Assembly (NCBI RefSeq): GCF_000969885.1
Contig: NZ_CP009501.1
Span: 1-64,000, forward strand
DNA from: Methanosarcina thermophila TM-1
GTDB taxonomy: Archaea; Halobacteriota; Methanosarcinia; Methanosarcinales; Methanosarcinaceae
Direction of reading: 5' to 3'
Length of the DNA stretch: 64,000 nt
Position numbers and translations under genes: made by a program. The first letter of the stretch is position 1. Every line of letters begins with the position of its first letter. Below, piece by piece: positions 42,664 through 58,119 of the stretch. The notes beneath the pieces are model-generated. The model had not been told where the DNA came from, searched no databases, and saw only the letters and a list, made by a program, of their open reading frames with translations.

Positions 42664-45348
42664 TCAGAGTGATTTAAAACGGGCTCGATAAGCCATGATC
42701 TTTTCAGCATATTTTGGACTGTTGCGATGTTTAAATTCAATGGCGCACACGATAAACGGCGGTAGACTTGCCGAGACACTCGACCAGAGTGGTGGATCTT
42801 GCAGTTTCTGCCAGTTAACCTTTTTTGTGCCTATACGCCATTGATTCCAGACACGCACCGCTTCTTCCATACGTGCCGTCTTTTCCAATGGATCCATACC
42901 TTTGAGGCAAGATGCTTCTGCCTGTTTAAGGCTATACGCCCCGGTGAACAACAATGCCCTCTTGTAGTGCTCGCCATCAAGCCAGCGCTCGGGATTCCCG
43001 GACTCTGCGGCGTACTGCAGCGCCTTTGCTACAGTTACCGGTCCAGCATTATAAGCCAGGGCGAGCAAACGAAGCTGCTCAGCTTCCGGAAGCTGGTCGT
43101 AACGCTGACCACGTTCTTTCAGCACATTCTCCATAATGATGCGAAAGTCACGGAGTTTCTTTGTGCCTGAGTCAATGGACACTGCGGGCTGTTTGTAAAT
43201 TTCACCCTTGTCTGACTGCATCAGGCCAGTATATCCACTCTTTGCGACGAGATCTTTGTTGCCTCCTGATTCGGCTGCGATAACGCCAAGGATAAGTGCC
43301 GAATCTACACCATATTTCGCAGCCGCCGCCTCTACAAGCGGGCGATACCGCTCAACCATAGAAACCACTTTATCGCTCACCTTAATTCCACCTGCGGCTG
43401 CACTCTTTGAATAACTGGGTGCAGGAGGCGTCGGAGTCAGGCGCCGTGTCACTGCGTCAGCTAACGCCGCGCGTGTAGCCGCATCAATCGTCGCATTGAA
43501 ACCAAGCCCGCGTTCGGACTTGAACTTTGATATGGTCTCTTTCGTGCGCGCATCTAATAAGCCAAGCTGGGCGAATATCGACTGCTGAGCAAGTTCTTCA
43601 AATGCCCTTTGGATAAGGGCAATCTCTGTCTTAGAATCGAGCACGCCGCCAGTTCCAAGGCTGTATTTTCTGCGGAAGCGCTCGAGTGCACCCTTTGTAA
43701 GAGGTCCAAGGGCTCCATCCGGATTAAGCCGTTCTCCCTCGGCTGCGTTCAGTATTCGCTGCACAAATCGCACCAGTTCAGTGGCTGGTTTAGCTGCACT
43801 TTGTGACGGCTTTGGAACAGACGTTGCGGGAGTGGGCGTCACGGGTTTAACGGGCGTTGCAGAAGGTCTAATGCCCCTCGCTGAAATGCTTGCGCTAGGG
43901 GCAAGATCAAGATGGAAGTGAAGAATTAGAGGGTCCGGTCCGTGCCAATTCAGACCAATAACCCTGTTGTTTTTGTCCTTTACTGCCTTGCCTACAAAAA
44001 TAACATTCTCACGACCGGTCTCCTGGTTAATAGCTTTTGCCACAGAAAAATCATTATAAATTACCCGCCACTCTGCCTGAATTGCCCTGGCAGCCTCTTT
44101 AACCGCCTTCAAGAACTCAATAGCCTCTTTATACGGGTAGAACTTTCGTTCATCTAAACCTTTAAGAAATAAATCAAGAGAATAGCCCCGGTTTAGGAAG
44201 CTTCCTCCGCCATGTCCCCGGTAATTTGATACATCAAAGGGTTTACGATAGCGCTGGCGTAATTCTTCGACAAATTTTACTGTAATGGGTGCTACTAGTG
44301 CCTTGCTGCTGCCACTGATCAGCTTACTGGAAACCATTGTGACTGAAACTGCAGGTGGTTTAAAGTTCAGTAAAGGTTTGATGCTGCCGGACAGAGAAAA
44401 AATCTGAAATTTCATATTCTCCTGGCGGCTTATGACCCAGGCTCTGCCAATAGCTTCAACCGTGTATTTTCCCTTATTATAATTACCCTTCCACCTGAGG
44501 CGGGCACCCTCTAGAGTATCCTGGTAATCTTGCAAAAGCCATTTAGTTATTTCCCCTGCTGATGGCGAGCCTTTTCTGAGCCTTGACCATTCTTTCCCCA
44601 AATTTGTGGCAAATTCTGTGATGTAGGCAGGTATTGCAGGACCCAGTTCTGATTCGAAACTTGGCCAATTTATGCCTTCTTCCTCAGATTGAATAAAGAA
44701 CTCTTCGTCCAGTAATGGTTCTTCTTCCCCGTATACTGTTTCTTCTAAAGGGTATATCCCCTCTTCTTCCGGCTCTATCCAAATTTCTTCTGGTTCGACC
44801 CACATCTGTTGCGGGATAGACAACTTCTCTTCGGGAAAACTCTCCCTATCTACTTCATATGTATCTTCGCCCGAGTAATAGAGTTCATCAGTGCTGTATT
44901 CGGGATTCGAAAATTCTTTCTCACTGTAGGTTTCATTTTCATCCGCCGGATAATTGTCTGCGCCAGCTCGTTCTTCCCAGGAGAGCTCATCTTCCAGTTC
45001 ATCCGCCTTTGTGACCTCTAACTTTCTTGCGTAGGGCTGCTCTAAGGTATCATCCCCCACGCTAAAATCTTCCTCTTGAGGTTCAGCTTCATGCTTGTAA
45101 AAGCTCTCTATCTCCGGCTCTTCTCTTTCTTCATAAATATCTTCTTCATAAAAATCTGACTCAAAAATTTTCCTTTGACTCTCTTCGAACGCGTGCGTAA
45201 ATGGGCTCTCGCTAATTAGGGTTTCAAGATGTGCTTCTAACTCTGGTTCAACTTCCTTGACAAAAAGCTCCCTGTCAAGAAAGGGAGTCTCAAGGTCGCC
45301 CTCTGAGAGGAAGGGCGAATCCTCGCGTTGCTTATCCTTTGAAGGCAT
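42664..45348 (-). CDS. Modular peptidoglycan hydrolase: M15-like, PG-binding, lytic transglycosylase
   Basis: 894 residues. Residues 1-60 carry SPFLSEG, TPFLDREL and ESPFTHAFE; 60-235 is acidic and probably disordered. About 255-482 looks M15-peptidase-like, with possible metal ligands H379 (GHGGG), D392 (YSLDLF) and H477/H479 (LHFH). A Pro/Thr linker (490-520) leads to peptidoglycan-binding repeats (about 521-635). 660-800 is a family-1 lytic transglycosylase: catalytic E693 (AAESGGN), GLMQ 708-711 and AYNAGP 765-770. No signal peptide or membrane helix. Last gene of a five-gene operon, 35 bases after the previous one. Methanosarcina has no murein, so it should act on bacterial walls. Bacterial origin by transfer is likely. 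Confidence 0.85.
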   Translation of the reverse strand: MPSKDKQREDSPFLSEGDLETPFLDRELFVKEVEPELEAHLETLISESPFTHAFEESQRKIFESDFYEEDIYEEREEPEIESFYKHEAEPQEEDFSVGDDTLEQPYARKLEVTKADELEDELSWEERAGADNYPADENETYSEKEFSNPEYSTDELYYSGEDTYEVDRESFPEEKLSIPQQMWVEPEEIWIEPEEEGIYPLEETVYGEEEPLLDEEFFIQSEEEGINWPSFESELGPAIPAYITEFATNLGKEWSRLRKGSPSAGEITKWLLQDYQDTLEGARLRWKGNYNKGKYTVEAIGRAWVISRQENMKFQIFSLSGSIKPLLNFKPPAVSVTMVSSKLISGSSKALVAPITVKFVEELRQRYRKPFDVSNYRGHGGGSFLNRGYSLDLFLKGLDERKFYPYKEAIEFLKAVKEAARAIQAEWRVIYNDFSVAKAINQETGRENVIFVGKAVKDKNNRVIGLNWHGPDPLILHFHLDLAPSASISARGIRPSATPVKPVTPTPATSVPKPSQSAAKPATELVRFVQRILNAAEGERLNPDGALGPLTKGALERFRRKYSLGTGGVLDSKTEIALIQRAFEELAQQSIFAQLGLLDARTKETISKFKSERGLGFNATIDAATRAALADAVTRRLTPTPPAPSYSKSAAAGGIKVSDKVVSMVERYRPLVEAAAAKYGVDSALILGVIAAESGGNKDLVAKSGYTGLMQSDKGEIYKQPAVSIDSGTKKLRDFRIIMENVLKERGQRYDQLPEAEQLRLLALAYNAGPVTVAKALQYAAESGNPERWLDGEHYKRALLFTGAYSLKQAEASCLKGMDPLEKTARMEEAVRVWNQWRIGTKKVNWQKLQDPPLWSSVSASLPPFIVCAIEFKHRNSPKYAEKIMAYRARFKSL

Positions 45349-46582: not shown

Positions 46583-47095
46583 TCAGAGCGGGCCGACTCT
46601 GCACAGCCCAATGGCTACGTTGTTTGTCAAATCGGATTCATCGATCTCAAATTTAGCATTGACAGTTATAATAAACAGGCAATTCGAATTAGAGCACCTT
46701 TGCATATCAAACTCGAGTTCAATGGATTTGCCTGCTGGAATTTCCGGTGTGGTTTTGTCGCTGGTCTCACTGATATTGAAGTTACTTAAGTCAACAAAGG
46801 TCACTCTGGTAGTAGATTGAGGTGCAGTCGCATTGCCTCTGTTCTCGACAGTAACCACCAGCAGTTTCTCTCCTTCCTCCCCCTCTCTCAGATTACAGAA
46901 CTCCTTCAAGCCTTCCCTATCAGAAGGTGGCTTAACAGGCACTAAATCTGGAAGCCCTGCAGGAATACATCCACTTCTCCACTTTCTGTGGCTGGGAAGC
47001 TCTTCGTTCTTCAAATCCGGCTTTAATGGCACAAGCAATAGATCCCGAATCACGCTGAATTCTTTCTGGGCGATTTCTACGGTACTTTCTGTCAT
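46583..47095 (-). CDS. CARDB-like beta-sandwich protein
   Basis: 170 residues. Residues ~70-165 match the CARDB/immunoglobulin-like pattern of archaeal and bacterial surface proteins: LLVVTVENRGNATAPQSTTRV, PEIPAGKSIELEF, FIITVNAKFEIDESDLTNN. The N-terminal part is unclassified. No signal peptide or anchor, unlike most CARDB proteins, consistent with a shared non-Sec route or an intracellular assembly role. Spaced 30 bases after the HExxH gene. Likely a binding or structural component. Confidence 0.7.
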   Translation of the reverse strand: MTESTVEIAQKEFSVIRDLLLVPLKPDLKNEELPSHRKWRSGCIPAGLPDLVPVKPPSDREGLKEFCNLREGEEGEKLLVVTVENRGNATAPQSTTRVTFVDLSNFNISETSDKTTPEIPAGKSIELEFDMQRCSNSNCLFIITVNAKFEIDESDLTNNVAIGLCRVGPL

Positions 47096-47125: not shown

Positions 47126-48391
47126 TTAAGCGGCCTGCAAAGCGCCGCCAAGTCTTAGCATCCATTGTTCCTGTAACTTTATTGTCTCAGTTGTACGGTC
47201 AACCGATGTCGCTTTCCGCAAGCCCGTAAGAGCTAACAGACGCAAAGCCTCAGTCCAGATCCAGTGCATTGAGGTATACAGCGCAGCGCCAAGCTGTTGT
47301 TCCAGTGCCAGAAGCGTTTCCGGTTTTACACGCTCGGGATTGATCAGGGCAACAAGCGGACGTCCACCGAAAGACCGCATGGGCTTACGCAGCGTGATAT
47401 TGACAATACTCGGAAGCAGAGGCACAGATTCCCTGAGTAACTGTCCGGATGTACCACCTGATGCTCTCTGCAGAGGATATTGTTGAGTCCAGGCAAGGGC
47501 AAGGTCATCCCAGGGACCTGCTCCATAGAACTGCCGGCACATCTCCACACCAAGCAGTACTCGAAGGTAGCCTACGGGATGCGGGTCGCCCGGAGGGTAT
47601 CGAAAAACTATTGACTCTCCCCCGTCCACCACATCGTATAAAGAAGCCACACTTGCATAGCCGGTGTGTACAAAAGAAAAAGCGTCTGCAGCAATTTCCG
47701 ACGCCCAGCTTCTCCATGCCTCTGCAACTCCCGCTGGTGCATCGGTAAGACCGGCTGCAAGAGCCGCGGAAAGTTCTTCACTCCAGCCTGTGATATGTGC
47801 TACTTGATGCCCAGCCTCATGAATCAGAGCAGTCGGACGGTGTAAGTTATGCCGGGTTATTTTGATGGCTGCAACCGGGTTTAAACTGGTCTCGTCCCAG
47901 AGGCGCAGACCGGCTTTCAGAATCGAAGCTCCCAAGCCTTTATCAATATAGGTAAGTACTATCGGGGTCGGCTTTCCAAGCTGATCGAGAATTTGAGCCA
48001 TACTCCGGTGTGCAAGAGTATCACAGGCTCTTAGAAGACCTGCCATTTTCGTACTTGTGCGGGTGCTAATTGCATCAGCATAAAAGTCCAGTGTCGCCTC
48101 AACGCGCAGGTATCGCTTGCGAAAGGTCAGTAATTGACGCCTTACGGTCAATATATCGGCTGTAGAGGAGGCTGAGTTAAGGGAAGTTTGCAAGAAAGTG
48201 GCTTCGCGTTTTAATTTCTCTACTACCATGGTTAGATGCTGCCGAATTGACAAACCAAGATAGCGCTCGAGGCTATTCCACGCAGAAGGCGATGCCAGAT
48301 CATCCAGATCTTGAAGCCGCATTGCAGCGGCAGTCCAGTGAGCTACCTGACGGGCGAGCTGAGTCCTGACCGCAGTATTTGGATCACTCAT
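47126..48391 (-). CDS. HExxH gluzincin-like metalloprotein of the PG-hydrolase operon
   Basis: 421 residues. Zinc motif H191-E-A-G-H195 followed by S-E232-I-A-A-D236, an HExxH...ExxxD arrangement of gluzincin peptidases, with E232 as the likely third ligand. The N-terminal 130 residues are helical. No signal peptide. Its ATG (48391) overlaps the upstream stop by 8 bases (ATGAGTGA), so translation is coupled. It could be a protease that processes operon partners, or an effector. Outside the metal site I cannot assign a family. Confidence 0.75.
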   Translation of the reverse strand: MSDPNTAVRTQLARQVAHWTAAAMRLQDLDDLASPSAWNSLERYLGLSIRQHLTMVVEKLKREATFLQTSLNSASSTADILTVRRQLLTFRKRYLRVEATLDFYADAISTRTSTKMAGLLRACDTLAHRSMAQILDQLGKPTPIVLTYIDKGLGASILKAGLRLWDETSLNPVAAIKITRHNLHRPTALIHEAGHQVAHITGWSEELSAALAAGLTDAPAGVAEAWRSWASEIAADAFSFVHTGYASVASLYDVVDGGESIVFRYPPGDPHPVGYLRVLLGVEMCRQFYGAGPWDDLALAWTQQYPLQRASGGTSGQLLRESVPLLPSIVNITLRKPMRSFGGRPLVALINPERVKPETLLALEQQLGAALYTSMHWIWTEALRLLALTGLRKATSVDRTTETIKLQEQWMLRLGGALQAA

Positions 48392-50756
48392 GCGCGTACC
48401 CCGGAGTAACTCTTATTTTCACAGTTGGTGTGCCATCTGACATTTTCAGGCTGGGAAGAGAGAGGCTTTTTTCTTTTAGAGCTTGACGAAGTTGTGGGAA
48501 CCCTGGCGGATTTTCAACGATAACTACGAACGTCACACCATCAGCGGTGTCTGAGGCAGCCTGGATGAATGCCTCTGAATGTTGCTTCAGATGGTCTGAA
48601 ATCCCTTTAAGAACCCACTCATTCAGCCTGCCCAGGAGAATCCTCGGAACCAGAGAAGGCAGCCGCTGGAAGACACTTGACCATTGATCCGGTGTTACGG
48701 CTTCGTGAATTATTTTCAGCCGCCCAGACGAACCTGAGAGTGCGCGGTGTAACCCACGTTTAATAGGTCTTTGCAAGCGGGCTGTAACTGTGCCAATGTG
48801 TGTATGCTGTCGAAGCTTCACGGCAATCTCTTGAGCGCGGATCTCACTCAGGAAGAGTCGAACCTCTATTTCGTTCCTGGGAAAGTTGAGAATAACCTTT
48901 ACGCTTGTTGCACGGCGCATTTTAACCTGTCCTGGCGCCGCTGGAGTCATGAGAGGGCGCTTCCCGGGAATTTCAAGATAGTAAAACCGCTGCCCAACTG
49001 TGGTAGAGTAAGAGTCAATGAGATACCTGGGGTCTACATCCCTACCCAACTCCGGTTCCCCTAGCAGAAGTCCTGCTGCATCCGTTGTTAGTGGATGGAG
49101 TTGCTCATAAGCATCCTGAGTATCCAATCCAGTACTGTTTTCCTCCAGTCGGGAGATATCTGTCAGGCGTGTACCTGGAATGCTTTCATAAAGATGAACA
49201 ATTGCCTCGAATTCTTCACCGGGCGCAACTCCAAGTTTTTCTTCCAGGAACTCCTCAAGAGAGATCCCCTCAAAGGTCTCGATAGCCGAAACTTTATGTG
49301 GTGAAAGCCTGGTCGGAATTTTGCGACTGAACTTTTTATACCGTTTCCTTCTCCCAGAAGGCATTGTGATCCAGGTGCCACGGAGTTTCCTTGCTTCTCC
49401 AAGGTCAGGGCGCTTTTGATAAATTTCCTCAGGAAGAACCTGTGGGAGATTTGTAGCTGCAGCCTGTTCAAAGGCTTCCAGCACAAAGCCTTCGAGAAGT
49501 TCCTGGTCATTAAGAATATAATCTGGGAGTTCAGCCACACGACGCACAGTTTCCTCAATGGTAGCAGCCACAGCCGAAGAAGCAGCACGCGACTCGTCTT
49601 CATATGTTGCTTCCAGATGGATGAGGCGCAAACCAGCATCTACAATAGCCTGTGAGAGTGCAGGGGTATGCTGAGGACCGACGAATTTCTGTATGAGCTT
49701 GCCCAGAAATTTAGCCAGAAAATCCACGACTTTTTTACGCCCAATGAGTCTGATTCCAACCTTTAGGGCTGGAAGAATGGCTGGGATAAAATTCTCAACG
49801 TATGGAGTGGGATCTTCTCCTTCCTTCAGGTGTTGCAGCTTCTCAGCAAAATCGTTCCTGGCATTGTCCAGCTCAGCCAGAGAATAAATCTCAGGAGCCT
49901 GCTGTTCAGTCAGTGCTTGGGAAACTTCCAGTTCCTGCTCAACTTCAGTGTGGGCGAAAAGTACATTTGCAACATGCTGGTCGAATTCATATTGAATCAG
50001 TGAGATCTCTGAAAGCTCGGTGTCCTCTGGTACAGGATAATTACCTTCTTCAAATTCCTTCAAAAAAGGAAGGCGCTCAGCCAATTTCTTAGCCATGGGT
50101 TGGAGTTGAACGGGTAATTTTCCAATTGCGGTCTGAACAACTCGCTTAAGTAGTGGTTTGATAAGCGCCTTGAGCTTGTTGAGTATTGGCCCAAGACCCA
50201 GCTTGGCTGCAGCGCTGATTCCCTTTTTTGCAAGGTCTACAGCCTTGCCGGCGACTTTCTTTACGACCTTTTTAAGTTTTCCCAGAAAATTTTCAAAGTT
50301 GGGAGTGAATTCAATCGAAGGCTTATACCTATCAACGATTTCTCCAATTTCATACTCTGAAAGACTTTTAATATCTCGCTGGCAAAGTTCTGTTTCCAGG
50401 CTCCCAAGCATAGCCTCGGATTCTGTAATGAGTGGAGCAAAGTGCTGGTTGAGGAATCTTTCAGCTTCGTAGCCGATAATTCTAGGATCTCCGTTTTCAT
50501 GTGTAAAGCGGACTTCATAAAGGGAAGCAGCCTCGCTTACCAGGCCGTATAGAGCTTCATTGAATTCCTCGTCGTAAAGTTCATTGAGAAATTGAATGTA
50601 TTCTTCAGTCTCCGGATCAATCACGCCGCCGGTTTCTTCGGATTCGTAAATAGATAAAAATGGGGTGCTGGGAGGGGTTGAAGTCTCAAAGATTTCTTGA
50701 GTTACCTCCTCCACAGCGAAACTGCTGATGTTCAGGAACGGTGCTTGATTCTTCAT
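48384..50756 (-). CDS. 790-residue PFL-motif protein of unknown function
   Basis: First gene of the operon. Residues 1-40 hold QAPFLNI and TPFLSIYE, like the N-terminus of the 894-residue hydrolase. Residues ~157-235 form a strongly basic amphipathic region (LKKVVKKVAGKAVDLAKKG, then LKALIKPLLKRVVQ) resembling membrane-active helices. A second basic amphipathic stretch lies near 355-375. About 495-515 is very basic (GRRKRYKKFSRK). The C-terminal ~250 residues look like a folded alpha/beta domain. No signal peptide or clear membrane helix. I recall similar large unclassified proteins in bacteria but cannot name a family. It may be a membrane-acting effector or scaffold. Confidence 0.75.
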   Translation of the reverse strand: MKNQAPFLNISSFAVEEVTQEIFETSTPPSTPFLSIYESEETGGVIDPETEEYIQFLNELYDEEFNEALYGLVSEAASLYEVRFTHENGDPRIIGYEAERFLNQHFAPLITESEAMLGSLETELCQRDIKSLSEYEIGEIVDRYKPSIEFTPNFENFLGKLKKVVKKVAGKAVDLAKKGISAAAKLGLGPILNKLKALIKPLLKRVVQTAIGKLPVQLQPMAKKLAERLPFLKEFEEGNYPVPEDTELSEISLIQYEFDQHVANVLFAHTEVEQELEVSQALTEQQAPEIYSLAELDNARNDFAEKLQHLKEGEDPTPYVENFIPAILPALKVGIRLIGRKKVVDFLAKFLGKLIQKFVGPQHTPALSQAIVDAGLRLIHLEATYEDESRAASSAVAATIEETVRRVAELPDYILNDQELLEGFVLEAFEQAAATNLPQVLPEEIYQKRPDLGEARKLRGTWITMPSGRRKRYKKFSRKIPTRLSPHKVSAIETFEGISLEEFLEEKLGVAPGEEFEAIVHLYESIPGTRLTDISRLEENSTGLDTQDAYEQLHPLTTDAAGLLLGEPELGRDVDPRYLIDSYSTTVGQRFYYLEIPGKRPLMTPAAPGQVKMRRATSVKVILNFPRNEIEVRLFLSEIRAQEIAVKLRQHTHIGTVTARLQRPIKRGLHRALSGSSGRLKIIHEAVTPDQWSSVFQRLPSLVPRILLGRLNEWVLKGISDHLKQHSEAFIQAASDTADGVTFVVIVENPPGFPQLRQALKEKSLSLPSLKMSDGTPTVKIRVTPGYAHE

Positions 50757-51775
50757 ATCATTACCTCTTCAGGTTTTCTCGTGACATTGCGAAGGTTTTT
50801 TCCCTCTTGCAAGCAATAGAGAGCATGAGCAGGCTGGAATCTGCACGATCTGTCCGAGAGAGCATGGGCAGGCTGGAATCTGCACGTTCTGTCTGTTACT
50901 GGTTCACATCGTAGGAAGAAAAGCTGGGTCAGTCTGATACAGTGCCTTTTTGATAACTTAACTTTTCTCAGGCGCACGCTGTCAAATCAGATCAACCCAC
51001 AAACTTCTCGTATTTTTGGTGTTAAACTCTCGAGTAAAATATCTCTAAGGTTGACTGTCGGATTCTATTGTTTCCTTAGCTGGCGAGCTTGATGTCCATC
51101 TTATTTGAGTAACATTGTTAACCAATACACTTCAGCAGTGCAAAATGATCAGCCTCTAACTCTTCATGCTTTTGCGCGAATTTCACTGGCCGCGTTTTTC
51201 TCCTGTAAAAAGCAACAGCTAACAGAGCACAGAGGTCTTTAGTACTGGATTGCCAGAGTTTAGCATATCAGCCAATAACCCCACTCAAATTACATCAGCA
51301 ATCACAAAATTACTTGAAGCAATTGTGAGATTATTAATGCCACATCCCTGACTAACAATATTTTTAATATTGACCCCTTATAGCGATTCAGTGAATTTAC
51401 CCATGTCCCCGATTGTTCACTTTGTATAAGATAAATATTAATTTAATGTAATAGTATAAAACTATATTTGTATATAACTGTTATAAAATATATATTTTGA
51501 AGCCTGGTTTCCAGTTTTTCAGACACATGGTCCGTCGATGTCCTTATCTAAAATCAGTTAAAGAATGCTGATTTATCGGCTTATCAGTCTGATTATTGAC
51601 TGCTGGAATAAACAAATTTGAGTTAATAAAAGCAGTTAAAAGAAATCAGTTAATTAGAATCTGCTCATCTGGATTTGCTCATTCAGGTTTATATAGATAG
51701 ACGTAGATATTGTTTGCCCGGTTGAGCAGTTATAAAAGGCGAATCTATCCTTAAAAGGGGGAAGTCAGGTTAAAA
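50757..51775 (-). promoter_or_regulatory. 1-kb upstream region of the five-gene operon
   Basis: No gene seen. A 37-bp unit is repeated in tandem at 50819-50855 and 50856-50892 (three differences; core GCAGGCTGGAATCTGCACG, itself containing GCAGG...CTGCA complementarity) 65-140 bases before the first gene. AT-rich TATA-like stretches lie at 51420-51500. The tandem unit is a candidate regulator binding site. Confidence 0.4.
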
Positions 51776-57065: not shown

Positions 57066-57170
57066 TCTTGTTCCATTTTTTTCTTTTCTGTTCCATTTTT
57101 TCTTTTCTGTTCCATTTTTTCTTTTCTGTTCCATTTTTTCTTATTCCTATTCCATTTTTCTTATTCCTGT
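57066..57170. repeat. Short tandem repeat TTCCATTTTTTCTTTTCTG
   Basis: About five consecutive 19-20-base units, the middle ones identical, then two degenerate TTATTCCT variants, ending at the stop of the minus-strand gene. A 16-base unit TTCCAACATTATAACT is doubled nearby (56981-57013). The gap 56831-57160 has no gene; a GGGGGAGC/GCTCTCCC hairpin near 56863-56890 may terminate the array. Confidence 0.6.
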
Positions 57171-57514
57171 TTCTGTGTTTCTAGTTGTCTTTCTAACTGT
57201 GTTATGTCCAGCAGTACCCTGAAGAGTGAATTCCTTCCTATGTCCCTTAAATCGACTTCTACGGGCTGGGTCAATGTATCCCTGACAGCTCTCCATTCCT
57301 CCCTGAAGATATCAACTATTTCCCATGGACCTGCAGAGCTATCTTTTGCCCTATCACGGGCAAGTTGCAGAAGCAGGTGTTTCTTTTCCATAGGCGTGAG
57401 ATTTTCTATCCCTTTGACTTCCAGCTCACTTACAGTCGTTTCACCCATTTTGGATTGGACTTCTATTGGCTTTCCTGGCTCATCTTTTATTTCATCTGTT
57501 ACTTTTCTTTCCAT
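57161..57514 (-). CDS. Unknown 117-residue protein downstream of TIR gene
   Basis: An acidic, helical soluble protein. The first 35 residues look disordered (IKDEPGKPIEVQSKMGE); residues 38-115 form a helical domain (LTPMEKKHLLLQLARDRAKDSS, PWEIVDIFREEWRAVRD, RNSLFRVLLDITQLERQLE). ATG 57514 follows AGAGGTC. Its start lies 44 bases after the TIR stop, in one operon. No family recognised. Confidence 0.7.
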   Translation of the reverse strand: MERKVTDEIKDEPGKPIEVQSKMGETTVSELEVKGIENLTPMEKKHLLLQLARDRAKDSSAGPWEIVDIFREEWRAVRDTLTQPVEVDLRDIGRNSLFRVLLDITQLERQLETQKQE

Positions 57515-57558
57515 CAGTTCGACCTCTTCACTATTTCAATCCGACTTTGAATACATGA

Positions 57559-58119
57559 TCAGAGCACAGGTCTGAAGGTTCTGGGGTCCAGATGAATATT
57601 TTTCTGGCAGTAACTGCATTTTGTCTCAAGGTGGGTCCCTGCAAGAAGCGCTCTTTCTACTTCTTCCTGAGGTGAAATGTACTGCGTCATCTCCTCCCCA
57701 CAATAGGGACACTTTATCTTCAGCCAGTCAAGCCTTGTCAGTTCTCTCAGGTTCTGTATCAATTTCCCCAGAGCATCCTCATAAGCTTCTGGAGAAAAGA
57801 CAATGGGCTGCAGGTGACGTATCAGGACAGGCAATTCGACCCCTGTCTCTACCAGTGGAATTATAAGCTGATCTACCCCGACTGCAAAGCCGATTTCCTG
57901 ATTTACTTCTTGCGACCCTGCCCCTTCCTTTGTGAGAATGGGGATAAAACAATCTGACTGACGAATCCCAAAACGTATCCTCTCACCAGGGGAAAGAATT
58001 CGAGCCTTCCTGTACAGGAATGAAAAGCTCTCCAGTTCCACAGCCCAGAGAGCTCTGACAAGTTCCCGAGCAAGTGGTTCATCCTGCTCGCAGTGAGCTA
58101 TATAAACTTTTGAGATCAT
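57559..58119 (-). CDS. TIR-domain protein with C-terminal zinc ribbon
   Basis: 186 residues. TIR-like fold over 1-130: KVYIAHCEQDEPLARELVRAL (first strand and helix), then SDCFIPILTKEGAGSQEVNQEIGFAVGVDQLIIPL. E75 in NQEIGFA sits where the catalytic Glu of NAD-cleaving TIR domains lies. Residues 135-180 hold a zinc ribbon (C137, C140, C168, C171). Such pairings suggest a signalling or immune effector sensing nucleic acid or a partner, but TIR-like (DUF1863-type) proteins also have other roles. Middle gene of a three-gene operon. Confidence 0.75.
   Translation of the reverse strand: MISKVYIAHCEQDEPLARELVRALWAVELESFSFLYRKARILSPGERIRFGIRQSDCFIPILTKEGAGSQEVNQEIGFAVGVDQLIIPLVETGVELPVLIRHLQPIVFSPEAYEDALGKLIQNLRELTRLDWLKIKCPYCGEEMTQYISPQEEVERALLAGTHLETKCSYCQKNIHLDPRTFRPVL

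What the first reader, a model, noticed from the sequence alone, without database searches (positions are those of the whole stretch)
42664..45348. Archaeal protein combining M15-like, PG-binding and lytic transglycosylase modules
The transglycosylase module has all hallmark residues (E693, GLMQ, AYNAGP), so it should be active. With an M15-like metal site and PG-binding repeats one chain could cut both glycan and peptide. Methanosarcina lacks peptidoglycan, and bacterial-wall-killing hydrolases from archaea are only beginning to be reported.
Basis: partly seen in the sequence, partly recalled or inferred. Interest (0 to 1): 0.75.

Follow-up and report, generated by a model that had tools for sequence, protein, structure and literature searches.

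The report
Archaeal bacterial-wall-cutting enzyme, swappable middle
A methane-making archaeon that has no peptidoglycan carries an acquired gene operon encoding an enzyme built to bind and cut bacterial cell walls, and a sister species has exchanged the middle of that enzyme for different enzyme modules, which looks like a weapon aimed at bacteria, although no activity has been tested.

Summary
The ORF (42664-45348, minus, 894 aa) is real and intact. Sequence searches confirm a lytic-transglycosylase/goose-lysozyme domain with its catalytic Glu (E693), and a peptidoglycan-binding domain plus a degenerate second copy. The M15-like module is not confirmed: no Pfam, PDB, plasmid, phage or viral match, two AlphaFold2 runs at pLDDT 40-44, and His-Asp spacing (12 residues between) unlike canonical M15 (6). 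It is nevertheless under strong purifying selection (dN/dS 0.09), so it is a real domain. The gene ends a five-gene operon-like cluster present in only 3 of 31 Methanosarcina genomes, at one site that is empty in others. In Methanosarcina sp. MSH10X1 the head and tail are kept but the middle is replaced by a serine-hydrolase-like plus a DUF2272 (papain-like) domain. One cluster protein (HExxH) has relatives on rhizobial and Paraburkholderia plasmids, one near a PG-binding/DUF2272/hydrolase/glucosaminidase protein. Best reading: an acquired, polymorphic antibacterial wall-degrading effector. No recognisable signal peptide and no phage-sheath gene, so the export route is unknown. Archaeal peptidoglycan hydrolases are already a published class (Strock 2025); the operon and module exchange are what seem new. 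No activity was tested.

The parts
42664..45348 (-). A894: modular peptidoglycan hydrolase: acidic N-terminus 1-235, central module 236-484, PG-binding about 521-640, SLT 655-800, C-terminal extension 801-894
   Evidence: ORF; Pfam; PDB; alignment; dN/dS 0.19 overall versus G006
43000..43338 (-). SLT / goose-lysozyme-like catalytic domain, E693 catalytic Glu
   Evidence: PF01464 4.3e-11, 1.4e-11 at these coordinates; dN/dS 0.095
43429..43788 (-). PG_binding_1 plus degenerate second copy (residues 521-640)
   Evidence: PF01471 1e-7, two stretches; repeat comparison
43897..44643 (-). Central module, residues 236-484, M15-like motifs only (H379, D392, H477/H479); the part exchanged in MSH10X1
   Evidence: no Pfam/PDB/plasmid/phage match; AF2 pLDDT 40-44; dN/dS 0.089; exchanged in L007
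44644..45348 (-). Acidic N-terminal region (79 D/E, 16 K/R in 235 residues), with SPF..HAFE motif shared with the MSH10X1 version; no hydrophobic signal segment
45384..46550 (-). B388: unknown protein, 35 bp upstream of A894; replaced together with A894 in MSH10X1
   Evidence: no Pfam; dS saturated versus MSH10X1
46583..47095 (-). C170: CARDB-domain protein; absent in MSH10X1
   Evidence: PF07705 2.5e-7; absent from the L007 ORF list
47126..48391 (-). D421: HExxH metallopeptidase-like protein with relatives on rhizobial and Paraburkholderia plasmids
   Evidence: tblastn 4e-17; H191, E192, H195, E232, D236 invariant in 7 homologues
48384..50756 (-). E790: unknown protein, first gene of the cluster; contains a strongly cationic stretch (residues 154-233, 19 K/R, 3 D/E)
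   Evidence: no Pfam above cut-off; in G000, G006, G019 and broken in G020

Best explanation
The protein is a secreted-type antibacterial effector of bacterial ancestry, carried by a five-gene cluster (E790-D421-C170-B388-A894) that entered the genome of a Methanosarcina ancestor. The PG-binding repeats hold the enzyme on the bacterial sacculus. The SLT domain cuts the MurNAc-GlcNAc glycan strands, using E693 as general acid/base. The central module adds a second, variable activity: an unassigned, possibly metal-dependent domain here, and serine-hydrolase-like plus DUF2272 domains in the sister species. Neighbours B388, D421 and E790 are proposed to help with processing, release or targeting, D421 as a zinc-peptidase-like protein. 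Shown: domains, conservation, purifying selection, acquisition at one site, module exchange, and the link of D421 to bacterial clusters. Inferred: enzymatic activity, export, bacterial target, and the roles of the neighbours.
For: SLT and PG-binding matches with catalytic motifs invariant in three species. SLT occurs in only 8 of 295 Halobacteriota genomes and, in the sampled Methanosarcina, only in the three cluster carriers. A894 is present in 3 of 31 Methanosarcina, with the flanking genes adjacent (189-998 bp) in non-carriers and 9.9 kb apart here. Purifying selection: dN/dS 0.095 for SLT and 0.089 for the central module. Module exchange between conserved head and tail in MSH10X1. D421 relatives on Rhizobium, Ensifer and Paraburkholderia plasmids; in Rhizobium CCGE532 a protein combining PG-binding, DUF2272, an HSGGG hydrolase-like domain and glucosaminidase lies a few kb away, and its DUF2272, PG-binding and hydrolase stretches align with the MSH10X1 protein. 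Precedent: archaeal PGHs that kill bacteria (PMC12352652).
Against: No signal peptide-like hydrophobic stretch, and no phage-sheath gene in any of the three carriers, so export is unexplained. B388 and E790 could not be linked statistically to the bacterial neighbours. No activity data. The central module is unassigned. No immunity gene is needed in an archaeon, so the usual toxin-immunity signature cannot be tested.
Confidence: 0.55

Rival explanations
1. Scavenging enzyme: it digests walls of dead bacteria or shed muropeptides for amino sugars or amino acids, rather than killing.
For: The same domains would serve; no export or injection machinery was identified.
Against: No peptidoglycan-fragment uptake or catabolic genes are in the cluster. 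Patchy distribution and module exchange fit conflict better. Methanosarcina live on methyl compounds, acetate and H2 (general knowledge).
Confidence: 0.15
2. It remodels the archaeon's own envelope (methanochondroitin, cell aggregation or dispersal), with substrate shifted from peptidoglycan.
For: Carriers belong to a genus that can make a methanochondroitin matrix (general knowledge).
Against: 28 of 31 Methanosarcina lack it; the PG-binding and SLT motifs are kept as in bacterial enzymes.
Confidence: 0.1
3. It is part of an intracellular or release system (for example lysis or packaging in a mobile element), not an antibacterial weapon.
For: No signal peptide; E790 has a strongly cationic stretch; PG hydrolases occur in phage tails and lysis cassettes (one search lists only weak module-level matches).
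Against: No phage or mobile-element genes in the cluster; archaeal hosts have no peptidoglycan to lyse; stable in three species at one site.
Confidence: 0.12
4. A decaying acquired fragment without function.
For: None beyond its patchy presence.
Against: Open frames in three species and dN/dS of 0.1-0.2 for A, B, D and E versus G006.
Confidence: 0.03

Closest known systems
Archaeal modular peptidoglycan hydrolases (Strock et al. 2025, PMC12352652), e.g. Woldo from Halogranum salarium
   Same: Cell-wall-binding PG_binding_1 plus a catalytic domain in an archaeon; patchy distribution; inferred domain shuffling; meets their definition of a PGH
   Different: Here the SLT/lysozyme type rather than M23; no signal peptide; long acidic N-terminus; five-gene cluster; direct case of central-module exchange between sister species. 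Whether it is already in their S2 Table could not be checked
EmtA/MltE and goose-type lysozyme (GH23-type fold)
   Same: Catalytic Glu and GLMQ motif
   Different: Those are single-domain enzymes; here one module of several, with a 94-residue conserved C-terminal extension
Rhizobium sp. CCGE532 plasmid protein (L018:16276-19080) and its gene cluster
   Same: PG_binding_1 plus variable hydrolase modules, acidic head, near a D421 homologue
   Different: Glucosaminidase instead of SLT; different module order; no M15-like region; B and E relatives not established
Horizontally acquired lysozyme of the archaeon Aciduliprofundum (Metcalf et al. 2014, PMC4241558)
   Same: Bacterial wall-cutting gene acquired by an archaeon
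   Different: Different enzyme family (GH25, general knowledge); no cluster or module exchange known to me

Membership tests
SLT lytic transglycosylase / GH23 | Significant match to SLT profile over most of the domain | tested here: met
   PF01464 42.8 bits vs cut-off 21.3, positions 2-111/117
SLT lytic transglycosylase / GH23 | Catalytic Glu, GLMQ and AYNAG motifs | tested here: met
   E693, GLMQ 708, AYNAGP 765, invariant in three species; ESGGN aligned with EmtA
SLT lytic transglycosylase / GH23 | Cleaves peptidoglycan glycan strands to 1,6-anhydro products | not testable with these tools
   needs enzyme assay
PG_binding_1 | Profile match above gathering score | tested here: met
   32.4 bits vs 23
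Peptidase M15 | Profile match to any M15 Pfam family | tested here: not met
   no family up to E 10; hhalign to six M15 domains not significant
Peptidase M15 | SxHxxGxAxD metal motif (His and Asp separated by 6) and downstream His | tested here: not met
   RGYSLD392 resembles GxAxD, but the nearest upstream His is H379, 12 residues between; H479 in HFHLDL resembles HVDL of M15_3
Peptidase M15 | M15 / hedgehog-type fold | tested here: inconclusive
   AF2 pLDDT 40 and 44 with two-sequence alignments
[quoted passage not shown]
   SLT + PG_binding_1; definition
Archaeal modular PGH (Strock 2025) | Secretion signal (found in only 32% of theirs, so not strictly defining) | tested here: not met
   no hydrophobic N-terminal segment by hydropathy; SignalP not available
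eCIS / contractile injection cargo | Sheath gene in the same genome | tested here: not met
   PF04984 absent in G000, G006, G019, present in 9 other Methanosarcina
Known antiphage defence systems (PADLOC) | Model hit for any cluster protein | tested here: not met
   no hit at E 0.01 for the five proteins

The most novel reading that the evidence does not exclude
The cluster is an undescribed, cross-domain family of polymorphic antibacterial systems. A conserved helper set, including an HExxH protein, carries a wall-binding effector whose enzyme modules are exchanged. The system is shared by soil bacteria and a methanogen, and it exports effectors by a route marked by the acidic SPF/HAFE-type N-terminus.
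Probability: 0.25. Interest if true: 0.8.

Novelty: new variant of a known kind. Interest (0 to 1): 0.55.

Why it matters
Antagonism of bacteria by methanogens is almost unstudied, and very few archaeal peptidoglycan hydrolases have been tested. A five-gene cluster with an exchanged effector module, in a genus with established genetic tools (general knowledge), would make archaeon-on-bacterium warfare directly testable and would point to an unknown export route. It would also give functional meaning to related, unannotated gene clusters on rhizobial and Paraburkholderia plasmids.

Tried and rejected
M15 confirmation: Pfam at E 10, PDB phmmer, tblastn of the module in plasmids and phages, viral-contig scans (and 78 with one chance hit L047 rejected), two AF2 jobs and hhalign to archaeal M15_3/M15_4 domains all failed to confirm it; low-confidence models were not sent to fold search. 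Contractile injection (eCIS) delivery: rejected as the local route because no sheath gene is in the carrier genomes. GC island as evidence of transfer: 2-kb windows are raised (0.455-0.497), but neighbouring coding genes have 0.44-0.48, so it was not used; the empty site was used instead. Homology of B388 and E790 to the bacterial neighbours, suspected by eye, was not significant and is not claimed. The 'of' option cannot start from a bacterial plasmid locus, and the single genome-contig scan found only MSH10X1, so bacterial chromosomes were not surveyed.

Full report
Observation. The ORF is at 42664-45348 on the minus strand, 894 aa, ATG to TGA. Pfam finds SLT (671-783, 4e-11) and PG_binding_1 (524-575, 1e-7). 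The SLT region matches EmtA (6e-7) and, over almost its whole length, goose-type lysozyme (5e-6) among solved structures. E693, GLMQ and AYNAGP are present and invariant in the three archaeal relatives. A second, degenerate PG-binding copy follows the first. These parts of the finding hold.

The M15-like module. Residues 236-484 have no significant relative in Pfam, PDB, plasmids, phages or viral contigs. AlphaFold2 with the only available pair of sequences gives pLDDT 40 (236-484) and 44 (340-486), too low to use. By eye the stretch LRQRYRKPFDVSNYRGHGGGSFLNRGYSLDLF...LILHFHLDL resembles Peptidase_M15_3 (L..LR...G....SGYR...SxHxxGxAxDI...HVDL). hhalign picks the first part of that, but without significance (E 0.097 for one comparison). 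The canonical metal His would fall on L385; the nearest His, H379, is separated from D392 by 12 residues instead of 6. So membership of M15 fails the motif and profile tests, while a derived metal site remains possible. The module is a real, constrained domain: dN/dS against the closest species is 0.089, as low as the SLT domain (0.095), compared with 0.56 for the short linker after it.

Context. A894 is the last of five same-strand genes with gaps of -8, 30, 32 and 35 bp and purine-rich ribosome-binding-like sequences upstream of most starts: E790, D421, C170 (CARDB), B388, A894. This is operon-like; transcription was not tested. Only 3 of 31 Methanosarcina genomes carry A894, and of 393 sampled Halobacteriota only those three plus one SLT-only hit. 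D421 shows the same three. E790 is in the same three plus a broken copy at a contig edge in a fourth. In three non-carriers the flanking genes (luciferase-like and the 52480 gene) are 189-998 bp apart; here they are 9.9 kb apart, with the cluster and a glyoxalase gene between. The three carriers share the same site, so the cluster probably entered once, in their common ancestor; loss in the others is the less simple alternative.

Module exchange. In Methanosarcina sp. MSH10X1 (L007) the syntenic protein is 1116 aa. It keeps the acidic head, including the (S/N)PF.HAFE motif, and the PG-binding/SLT/C-terminal tail (about 75% identity), but has a different middle: a stretch with an HSGGG nucleophile-elbow-like motif and a DUF2272 domain (2e-21). 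DUF2272 is classed as papain-like, grouped with NlpC/P60 and CHAP, usually with Ser replacing the Cys (PMC10318531). Synonymous divergence to MSH10X1 is 0.59 for D421, 0.85 for E790 and 0.64 for the flanking luciferase-like gene, but 1.1-2.0 for the A894 tail and saturated for B388, and C170 is missing there. The simplest reading is that the C-B-A end of the cluster was replaced by a divergent allele in one lineage. This suggests that A and B travel together; with one event it is only a suggestion.

Bacterial link. D421 has clear relatives on plasmids of Rhizobium, Ensifer, Paraburkholderia and, more distantly, Bradyrhizobium. HExxH (191-195) and a downstream E232/D236 are invariant in seven homologues, as in a gluzincin-type zinc site; this is inference from motif. 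In Rhizobium sp. CCGE532 a few kb away lies a 934-aa protein with an acidic head, PG_binding_1, DUF2272, an HSGGG hydrolase-like stretch and a glucosaminidase, which aligns with the MSH10X1 protein in DUF2272 (1e-24), PG-binding and the hydrolase-like stretch. In Ensifer the neighbouring PG-binding protein ends instead in a GIY-YIG domain. I suspected that E790 and B388 also have bacterial counterparts there, but the tests were not significant.

How it most likely works. Shown: a wall-binding and glycan-cutting architecture under purifying selection, acquired and with an exchanged middle. Inferred: that the protein reaches bacterial walls and cuts them. There is no hydrophobic N-terminal segment (best 12-residue mean 0.32) and no transmembrane stretch. 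The carriers lack phage sheath genes although nine other Methanosarcina have them, so an injection system of that type in the same cell is not available. The acidic head (79 D/E against 16 K/R) may mark a non-classical route, and the cationic stretch in E790 may be membrane-active; both are speculation.

Comparison and novelty. Archaeal modular peptidoglycan hydrolases, found in 175 of 3,706 archaeal genomes and shown to kill a bacterium in the Halogranum case, were published in 2025 (PMC12352652). This protein meets their definition. Their main text did not name Methanosarcina or SLT; their table could not be read here. Acquired wall-cutting lysozymes in archaea go back to 2014 (PMC4241558). 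The protein is therefore a new variant of a known kind. New, as far as these searches show, are the operon, the central-module exchange between sister species and the connection to an unannotated cluster type on rhizobial plasmids.

Limits. Bacterial chromosomes could not be surveyed. Structures were not obtained. No statement about killing rests on data.

Noticed in passing
50818-50886 (minus strand, upstream of E790): Two copies of a direct repeat CGTGCAGATTCCAGCCTGCYCATGCTCTCT, 39 bp apart, about 60-130 bp upstream of the first gene of the cluster; possible regulatory repeat. The upstream region is well conserved in G006 (93-94%).
   Followed up: partly
L017:16312-17244: Ensifer adhaerens plasmid protein with PG_binding_1 fused to a GIY-YIG nuclease-type domain, in the same cluster as a D421 homologue.
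   Followed up: no
L016:10665-11717, L017:10828-11745, L018:10904-11860: Family of acidic-headed proteins with a FLG(G/D) motif followed by a cationic/glycine-rich stretch and a conserved WVRxG C-terminus, encoded just upstream of D421 homologues on rhizobial and Paraburkholderia plasmids; no Pfam family.
   Followed up: partly
L019:9502-11613: Paraburkholderia sp. PGU19: two tandem highly acidic (EFEE/EWEGE repeat) proteins directly upstream of a D421-like gene.
   Followed up: no
L043:1-2388: Another archaeon of the same class (G304) encodes a long protein with a subtilase-like part, repeats and a Peptidase_M15_3 domain with canonical motif, another possible wall-directed protein in this group.
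   Followed up: no
L023:3162-12884 and L049:4134-13425: Rhizobial plasmid islands combining a D421-like or DUF2272/PG-binding protein with patatin, phospholipase D, CHAT, matrixin or serine protease genes; look like collections of hydrolase effectors.
   Followed up: no
57161-58119: TIR-like protein (weak ThsB match, E 0.005) next to a small conserved gene; conserved in non-carrier Methanosarcina as well.
   Followed up: no
L040 (G020:C40:38-1869): E790 homologue in a fourth Methanosarcina, broken by an in-frame TAG and a frame change near a contig end; could be decay, pyrrolysine reading or assembly error.
   Followed up: no
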